Shown: positions 30,691-31,503 of the stretch, piece by piece
How positions within the stretch are numbered: the stretch's first letter is position 1
Layout: every line of letters starts with the position of its first letter
Translations under genes and position numbers: made by a program
Notes under the pieces: model-generated
Databases searched by the model: none
Told to the model about the DNA's origin: nothing
The model's input: only the letters and a program-made list of their open reading frames with translations
Source of the DNA: a virus
Direction: 5' to 3' (one strand)
DNA: 64,000 nucleotides
Virus record (IMG/VR): IMGVR_UViG_3300034072_001149
Location: 62,001-126,000 of that record

Positions 30691-30718
30691 AGTCTACAGC
30701 ACAAAGCCTATATGTCAA
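30691..30718 (-). promoter_or_regulatory. Promoter of the phosphatase-like gene, predicted leaderless
   Basis: TTGACA (30713-30718), a 16-base spacer and TAGACT (30691-30696) on the - strand, then GGTGTA and the ATG at 30684. The -35 box overlaps the stop codon of the synthetase-like gene. Confidence 0.7.
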
Positions 30719-31503
30719 CCATCAATAGGTGGGATCTTATTGATATCATCGCGCTGGGCCTGATACCAGTTGTAAACGCAACGATCCAGACCAATAGCAA
30801 TTTCAAGGACCAGAGCGTCCTTTTCCACAATGTCTTTCTTGCCCTGAAAGGTCAGCTTCTGCGGGAAATCAGTTCGTAGACTGATCGAGCAAACTTCCAT
30901 CCACTTGTCGCCGTTCCAAATCTCGACATCCATGGTTCTCTTGCTGTAAGAGGGCAGGCGATCGCTTTCGACAATACGGGTTGGCAAATGGACCATAGCG
31001 GCAATCATCTGCTGGACCTTGGTCAGCATGGCTTCCTGATAGTCCATGCCGGTATCCGCAGTAAAGATACACTGGAATTCCTGCTGGTAGAATTCCTTCA
31101 AGCGCATATGCTTGGTTGGCTGGACAATTTCCCTGCGAAAGCTTTTGCCAGCTTGCCACACAACCAAGGGAGGGAAAACCTTGGGATGAACATTGTTGAG
31201 TAAGTGCTGGGCATAAGCATAGCTACCCGGCGTGGTCTCCGGACGCAAAGCCAGCTCACGAGGGGCATTCTCAACCCGATGGTCTCCCCACTGAAGCCAG
31301 ATGTCATCCTCGGTATAGTTGACGTTTAGGAGATCTCGGGGATTGAGAAGCGGGGCTTCGATCATGAAGAACTTCCAGCGATCATTCATAGCCAGGAGGT
31401 CAGCCTGCACCCTCGCGGCAAAGAAGTCCCGCATGGTTTCCCGCAAGCGGATCTCTTCCTCATTCCAAAAGACGAGACCGTTGATGTTGAAGACGTTCTG
31501 CAT
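30715..31503 (-). CDS. Class II aminoacyl-tRNA synthetase-like catalytic core (glycyl-type)
   Basis: 262 residues, about half the size of a GlyRS. L-R-P-E-T near 86-90, the motif 2 loop G-K-S-F-R-R-E (119-125) with R-L-K-E-F-Y-Q-Q-E-F (134-143), and motif 3 E-I-A-I-G-L-D-R (234-241) are all present. This order is most like dimeric GlyRS and its relatives. Class II enzymes use these arginines to bind ATP and activate an amino acid. No anticodon-binding domain follows. It starts 53 bases after a tRNA gene with anticodon CUA on the same strand, so it may charge that tRNA; amino acid unknown. Alternatively it is a non-canonical paralogue that aminoacylates something else. The start has only a weak GTGGA site. 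Confidence 0.7.
   Translation of the reverse strand: MQNVFNINGLVFWNEEEIRLRETMRDFFAARVQADLLAMNDRWKFFMIEAPLLNPRDLLNVNYTEDDIWLQWGDHRVENAPRELALRPETTPGSYAYAQHLLNNVHPKVFPPLVVWQAGKSFRREIVQPTKHMRLKEFYQQEFQCIFTADTGMDYQEAMLTKVQQMIAAMVHLPTRIVESDRLPSYSKRTMDVEIWNGDKWMEVCSISLRTDFPQKLTFQGKKDIVEKDALVLEIAIGLDRCVYNWYQAQRDDINKIPPIDG

What the first reader, a model, noticed from the sequence alone, without database searches (positions are those of the whole stretch)
30715..31503. Minimal class II synthetase core without anticodon domain beside the CUA tRNA
At 262 residues only the catalytic domain is present, with all three class II motifs. A synthetase that ignores the anticodon suits a suppressor tRNA. The sequence is GlyRS-like, but the substrate could be different or the enzyme could modify another target.
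Basis: partly seen in the sequence, partly recalled or inferred. Interest (0 to 1): 0.8.

Follow-up and report, generated by a model that had tools for sequence, protein, structure and literature searches.

The report
Stand-alone glycyl-synthetase-like core in jumbo phages
A large phage carries only the catalytic heart of a glycine-type tRNA-charging enzyme; close relatives occur across giant phages and in rhizobial chromosomes without the neighbouring stop-codon-reading tRNA, so the two genes are probably neighbours and not a dedicated pair.

Summary
The 262-residue ORF (30715-31503, minus strand) is a complete class II catalytic core with motifs 1-3 and no anticodon domain, and a well-formed CUA-anticodon tRNA lies 52 nt upstream. 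The core is GlyRS-like (best solved-structure match mycobacterial GlyRS, Z 22.2) and keeps the glycine-pocket carboxylates. It belongs to a family of stand-alone cores in giant phages, also found as lone genes under purifying selection in Rhizobium, Devosia, Phenylobacterium and Paraburkholderia. The family is annotated only as 'aminoacyl--tRNA ligase-related protein'.

The pairing with the suppressor tRNA is weak. The neighbourhood is colinear in the nine phages with the adjacent CUA tRNA. Most relatives lack that tRNA nearby, 18 of 20 other large CUA-tRNA contigs lack the core, and the tRNA's acceptor stem is unconserved apart from G73. UAG still ends 14 of 170 compared genes, and I found no convincing in-frame UAG.

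Most likely it activates glycine and acylates tRNA ends without reading anticodons, within a tRNA repair and charging island. A non-tRNA acceptor is the main rival. Phages appear to have passed the gene to bacteria at least twice (direction inferred).

The parts
30715..31503 (-). stand-alone GlyRS-like class II catalytic core, 262 aa
31333..31374 (-). motif 1 end (residues 44-57, invariant E49 and P55)
   Evidence: alignment A2; coordinates computed from residue numbers
31072..31140 (-). motif 2 (residues 122-144; loop as long as in GlyRS)
30781..30810 (-). motif 3 (residues 232-241, VLEIAIGLDR)
31556..31632 (-). tRNA with CUA anticodon, G73, encoded CCA, ordinary arms
32767..34116 (-). full-length cysteinyl-tRNA synthetase with anticodon domain
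34537..35370 (-). ATP-grasp ligase, R2K clade
36337..37602 (-). T4 Rnl1-type RNA ligase
28876..29211 (-). peptidyl-tRNA hydrolase PTH2
25946..27214 (-). polynucleotide kinase plus calcineurin-like phosphatase (Pnkp-like)
30241..30684 (-). dual-specificity-phosphatase-like protein (weak Pfam match, E 0.006), next gene after the core
31644..32105 (-). ion-channel protein between the tRNA and CysRS

Best explanation
A phage-borne, anticodon-domain-less GlyRS-type ligase. Shown: a class IIa catalytic core with intact ATP-site motifs and the glycine-pocket carboxylates, conserved across giant phages and also present in bacterial chromosomes in two separate branches. Inferred: it forms an aminoacyl-adenylate, most likely glycyl-AMP, and passes the amino acid to tRNA 3' ends without reading the anticodon, as one part of a phage tRNA repair and charging island (RNA ligase, Pnkp, PTH2, CysRS, tRNA). 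Its neighbourhood to the CUA tRNA is regional gene order; that tRNA may be one substrate but is not shown to be, and a host enzyme may charge it.
For: GlyRS is the best match by sequence and structure. Aligned with T. thermophilus GlyRS, the window's E89, R123, E142 and R210 fall on E188, R220, E239 and R311, and E234 on the motif 3 glutamate (alignments; the numbers and the glycine-binding role are recalled from Arnez et al. 1999, not read). All five are invariant in 28 sequences. The one change in the pocket, Ser to Ala at A236, also occurs in genuine GlyRSs: P0002 (annotated glycine--tRNA ligase) and the mycobacterial chain of entries 8sld and 8slg have EPA in motif 3, and 8slg was solved with glycyl-adenylate. 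The motif 2 loop has the same length as in GlyRS. Context: CysRS, PTH2, RNA ligase and Pnkp in the window; a CysRS gene overlaps the core in L018, and by reading ORF starts TyrRS-like and GluRS-like genes lie 1.5 and 2.4 kb away in L025 and L028. 25 of 56 phage core loci have a tRNA within 1 kb.
Against: No aminoacylation shown. The nearest tRNA shows no glycine preference: 3 of 18, 2.7 expected (two of the three are near-identical loci). The neighbouring CUA tRNA has G73, while 22 of 25 phage tRNA-Gly in the set have U73. The bacterial carriers already have GlyQ-type GlyRS (7 of 7 genomes) and keep the core under selection with no tRNA beside it, which fits a non-tRNA acceptor at least as well.
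Confidence: 0.45

Rival explanations
1. The core is an amino-acid ligase for a non-tRNA acceptor (carrier protein, protein side chain or small molecule), like aa:CP ligases, PoxA or AsnA. Its place among tRNA genes then reflects shared ancestry or a crowded translation region.
For: Loss of the tRNA-binding domain is the hallmark of aa:CP ligases (PMC9437257 section 12, read). There is weak sequence similarity to that family (E 0.024; 0.077 and 0.083). Bacterial copies stand alone in hosts with a GlyQ-type GlyRS, dN/dS 0.05-0.19. An R2K ATP-grasp ligase lies in the same island.
Against: No PP-binding carrier domain in 13 of 15 phage records searched, including all eight CUA-clade records in that search. 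The motif 2 loop is not shortened relative to GlyRS. Other synthetases and tRNA enzymes cluster nearby.
Confidence: 0.35
2. The core and the CUA tRNA are a dedicated natural pair that inserts one amino acid at chosen UAG codons.
For: In nine of nine phages of this gene order the tRNA lies 52-1874 nt upstream on the same strand. All nine have G73, against 34 of 106 distinct other CUA tRNAs, although eight different acceptor stems occur. TAG is a minority stop (4 of 66 ORFs; 14 of 170 orthologue pairs).
Against: Whole-region synteny. The core exists without a neighbouring CUA tRNA, and CUA tRNAs exist without the core. The nine are related phages, so they are not independent. There is no convincing in-frame UAG, and TAG is exchanged with TAA/TGA between orthologues. 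Four of the nine records (L002, L010, L013, L016) hold a second CUA tRNA with A73 elsewhere.
Confidence: 0.13
3. A catalytically inactive structural or regulatory relative, like the mitochondrial DNA polymerase accessory subunit, which has the same fold.
For: Pol gamma accessory subunits are among the best structural matches, Z about 19-20.
Against: The motif 2 and 3 residues and the pocket carboxylates are invariant over sequences as low as 39% identical to the window protein, and the catalytic signatures are kept in 72-74 of 74 bacterial copies.
Confidence: 0.05

Closest known systems
Dimeric (alpha2) glycyl-tRNA synthetase, actinobacterial/Thermus/eukaryotic type
   Same: catalytic core fold, motifs, glycine-pocket carboxylates, motif 2 loop length
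   Different: no anticodon-binding domain; lacks a long insertion between motif 1 and the RPET strand; about 20% identity; far below the NCBIfam GlyRS cut-off
Bacterial 'aminoacyl--tRNA ligase-related protein' (e.g. Devosia neptuniae WP_262165526.1)
   Same: same family: about 250 aa, no anticodon domain; alphaproteobacterial chromosomal copies are 54-59% identical to the window protein
   Different: lone chromosomal or plasmid gene, no tRNA beside it, no known function
aa:CP ligases (amino acid:[carrier protein] ligases)
   Same: class II core that has lost the tRNA-binding domain
   Different: nearest to SerRS (recalled), not GlyRS; carrier protein absent from most of the phages searched
PylRS / tRNA-Pyl
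   Same: compact class II core and a CUA tRNA in one neighbourhood
   Different: only a weak PylRS match (E 2.7e-4); the tRNA has ordinary arms
Phage amber-suppressor tRNAs (e.g. jumbo phage XacN1)
   Same: CUA tRNA in a jumbo phage with no identifiable target genes
   Different: XacN1's CUA tRNAs are reported without a partner enzyme in the passages seen

Membership tests
alpha2 GlyRS | class II motifs 1, 2, 3 with catalytic arginines | tested here: met
   R123 and R241 invariant in 28 sequences
alpha2 GlyRS | glycine-pocket carboxylates (RPET Glu, motif 2 Glu, motif 3 Glu) and Arg before DF | tested here: met
   E89, E142, E234, R210 invariant, aligned to GlyRS; role recalled
alpha2 GlyRS | C-terminal anticodon-binding domain | tested here: not met
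   no counterpart to GlyRS beyond residue 341; no PF03129 domain in G000, present in 4 of 15 records but inside frames of 395-665 aa
alpha2 GlyRS | score above the GlyRS equivalog cut-off | tested here: not met
   60.8 bits, cut-off 312
alpha2 GlyRS | glycylates tRNA | not testable with these tools
   needs biochemistry
aa:CP ligase | core without tRNA-binding domain | tested here: met
aa:CP ligase | family profile (PRK07080) | tested here: not met
   13.6 bits, cut-off 357
aa:CP ligase | partner carrier protein encoded with it | tested here: not met
   no PF00550 in 13 of 15 phage records; use of a host carrier not excluded
aa:CP ligase | active-site zinc | not tested
   requirement read in PMC9437257 section 12; ligands not mapped here
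PylRS/tRNA-Pyl | PylRS-type core | tested here: not met
   GlyRS matches at about 4e-14, PylRS at 2.7e-4
PylRS/tRNA-Pyl | unusual tRNA (small D-loop, long anticodon stem, short variable loop; recalled) | tested here: not met
   ordinary D-, anticodon and variable arms in the sequence
UAG-recoded phage (code 15 type) | many genes with in-frame UAG | tested here: not met
   TAG at 14 of 170 orthologous stops, no convincing in-frame UAG in the stretches examined

The most novel reading that the evidence does not exclude
In this phage clade the core has become a natural anticodon-blind synthetase for a G73, CUA-anticodon tRNA, giving a compact pair, independent of the host's GlyQ-type GlyRS, that inserts glycine (or another small amino acid) at a few regulated UAG codons. 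Jumbo phages have also handed the bare core to rhizobia and Paraburkholderia, where it took on a new housekeeping role.
Probability: 0.1. Interest if true: 0.85.

Novelty: new variant of a known kind. Interest (0 to 1): 0.5.

Why it matters
A GlyRS-type core that has survived without its anticodon domain over a wide range of giant phages, and has been kept under selection in bacterial chromosomes, is a natural test of what a class II catalytic domain alone can do: charge tRNAs by their acceptor end, or serve another acceptor. If it charges tRNA, it would be a compact starting point for orthogonal synthetase design and a model for how early synthetases worked before anticodon domains. It also gives a concrete, assayable meaning to a 'tRNA ligase-related protein' label.

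Tried and rejected
In-frame UAG in the window at 58842 (63 + 215 codons): rejected, because the 205-aa frame competes with a small gene in another frame ending ...DHAMLFKLTWS*.

Systematic in-frame stop scan: 24 TAG, 17 TAA and 9 TGA candidates remained. By eye they lie in frames that look antisense or untranslated, or just upstream of a start (L067:3800). The filter was imperfect, so rare real sites are not excluded.

tRNA-Gly preference next to the core: three loci looked suggestive, but the test gave 3 of 18 against 2.7 expected, P 0.55. That call left out 11 near-duplicate loci named in its script.

Origin of the CUA tRNA from a sense tRNA: the nearest isotype differed between the nine tRNAs, at 0.76-0.81 identity; uninformative.

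CUA tRNA in bacterial carriers: in 7 genomes pattern matches were no more frequent than in the reversed-pattern control, and ARAGORN found no tRNA at any of the 12.

Literature: search listings 27, 57, 58, 70, 76, 77, 78 and 92 showed no paper on this family; passages were read only from PMC9437257 (plus its section 12) and PMC5852040.

Full report
Observation. The ORF at 30715-31503(-) encodes 262 aa. It matches tRNA-synt_2b and, below their cut-offs, GlyRS family models. The best solved-structure sequence matches are mycobacterial GlyRS, E 2.5e-9, or 4e-14 with the family profile. AlphaFold2 on 20 aligned rows gave pLDDT 86.3 and pTM 0.86. VIA-align 2 places residues 1-253 on GlyRS 14-341 (Z 22.2, rmsd 3.4, 240 aligned), so the anticodon domain is absent. 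The tRNA at 31556-31632(-) has a CUA anticodon and ordinary arms.

Family. A tblastn search found 22 phage records: Sinorhizobium phage Phosso 61%, Xanthomonas phage XbC2 45%, Brevundimonas and Caulobacter Dolichocephalovirinae 40-43%, huge uncultured phages 45-57%, and three short faecal phage records at 25-29% that I did not follow. I fetched 8 of the 22. IMG/VR scans gave 25 loci and, with the alignment as query, 61 (which includes most of the first set again). Alignment A2 has 28 sequences; identical copies (L019-L022) and fragments (L029, L034) were left out. All 28 are stand-alone cores.

Bacterial copies. A scan of one genome per species gave 75 loci: mostly Rhizobium, also Phenylobacterium, Devosia, Mesorhizobium, Shinella, Pleomorphomonas and Paraburkholderia. 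Of 74 extracted proteins, 72-74 keep each catalytic signature, and nearly all are 247-255 aa. No tRNA was found within about 5 kb in 36 of 36 loci scanned. In the genus of G043 (the Rhizobium leguminosarum genome), 61 of 120 genomes have a match at E <= 1e-20; four of these (G055, G115, G121, G125) are partial or hold a stop. Pairwise dN/dS was 0.05-0.19 in 8 of 9 pairs; the ninth was saturated. In the tree of 76 rows, 15 alphaproteobacterial rows form one group with phage contig L030 as sister (99/98), and the two Paraburkholderia rows fall with XbC2-type phages (97/98). One MAG row (L246) is unresolved, as is Phosso's own place. This suggests at least two moves from phages to bacteria; the tree is midpoint-rooted and its bootstrap had not settled, so direction is inference.

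Active site. In one search the window's E89, R123, E142 and R210 align with T. thermophilus GlyRS E188, R220, E239 and R311, and E234 with the motif 3 glutamate. The roles of these residues in glycine binding are recalled. All are invariant in A2. A236 replaces the motif 3 serine, but mycobacterial and Tsukamurella GlyRS also have alanine there. Glycine is therefore the most conservative guess. The Mg-binding position reads E-x-x-S as in SerRS-type enzymes (recalled comparison).

The CUA tRNA. In nine phages (window, L002, L010-L016) a CUA tRNA lies 52-1874 nt upstream on the same strand. The window's genes from RNA ligase to Pnkp keep their order in all nine, and ClpP joins them in the eight loci other than Phosso, so the adjacency is not independent evidence. 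The nine tRNAs share G73 and the loop CTCTAAA but show eight different acceptor stems. Other CUA tRNAs have G73 in 34 of 106 distinct sequences. A pattern scan found 103 IMG/VR stretches with this type of CUA tRNA, 80 of them listed. I searched 20 of the large listed contigs not already known to hold the core (141 kb or longer; one of 140 kb was left out): 1 has a strong core match and 1 a weak one inside a 429-residue frame. Conversely, 25 of 56 core loci from phages have no tRNA in the flank held (flanks 5-10 kb, shorter at contig ends). Record-wide, the pattern plus ARAGORN found CUA tRNAs also in the core-bearing records of L004, L024, L025 and L032, away from the core; L289 and L313 hold one 2.8-3.4 kb from the core. 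ARAGORN read the match in the L017 record as tRNA-Arg.

UAG use. In the window 4 of 66 picked ORFs end in TAG. Across G000, 35 of 241 homology-supported open segments end in TAG, many of them short. Among 170 G000/G001 orthologue pairs, 14 end in TAG in G000: 8 of these also in G001, 6 exchanged for TAA or TGA. Extensions after TAG were not more conserved than those after TAA or TGA by inspection. TAG is therefore still a stop. Rare readthrough is not excluded. XacN1 is a precedent: two CUA tRNA genes, 18 amber stops tested, no target found (PMC5852040, passage seen).

Context. Around the core lie CysRS with its anticodon domain, PTH2, T4-type RNA ligase, a kinase-phosphatase of Pnkp type, an R2K ATP-grasp ligase, an ion channel and ClpP. 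In core loci outside this gene order, CysRS overlaps the core (L018), and TyrRS-like and GluRS-like ORFs lie nearby (L025, L028; the latter two by reading their starts only). This favours a role in tRNA charging, but the nearest tRNA shows no isotype preference.

Verdict. The protein is real and unusual. The suppressor-pair reading is not excluded but is weakly supported. The most likely role is an anticodon-blind glycine-type ligase acting on tRNA ends; the main rival is a non-tRNA acceptor, which the bacterial copies make serious. I found no paper on this family in the searches named under Tried and rejected.

Noticed in passing
window 28565-28876, 29417-29776, 34151-34537, 35970-36287, about 58500-58800 (-): Several small proteins share a C-terminal motif like 'AMLFKLRW': a multicopy family on the minus strand.
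   Followed up: no
records of L002, L010, L013, L016: A second CUA tRNA with A73 and different stems lies far from the core, so these phages carry two kinds of amber tRNA.
   Followed up: partly
L018:10001-12045: The core gene overlaps the start of a CysRS gene by four bases in a phage outside the CUA clade.
   Followed up: partly
genomes G055, G115, G121, G125 (genus of G043): Partial or interrupted copies of the core, suggesting that it is dispensable in some Rhizobium lineages.
   Followed up: no
BFVD K7QJG2 (Escherichia phage phAPEC8), A0A141HRQ2, A0A292GIB7, A0A2I7SAH4: Other 185-217-residue phage proteins with a class II synthetase-like predicted fold; possibly further stand-alone cores.
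   Followed up: no
window 31644-32105 (-): Phage-encoded ion-channel protein directly upstream of the CUA tRNA, found in six of the nine colinear phages including this one.
   Followed up: no
window 6609-17009 (+): Single ORF of 3466 codons.
   Followed up: no
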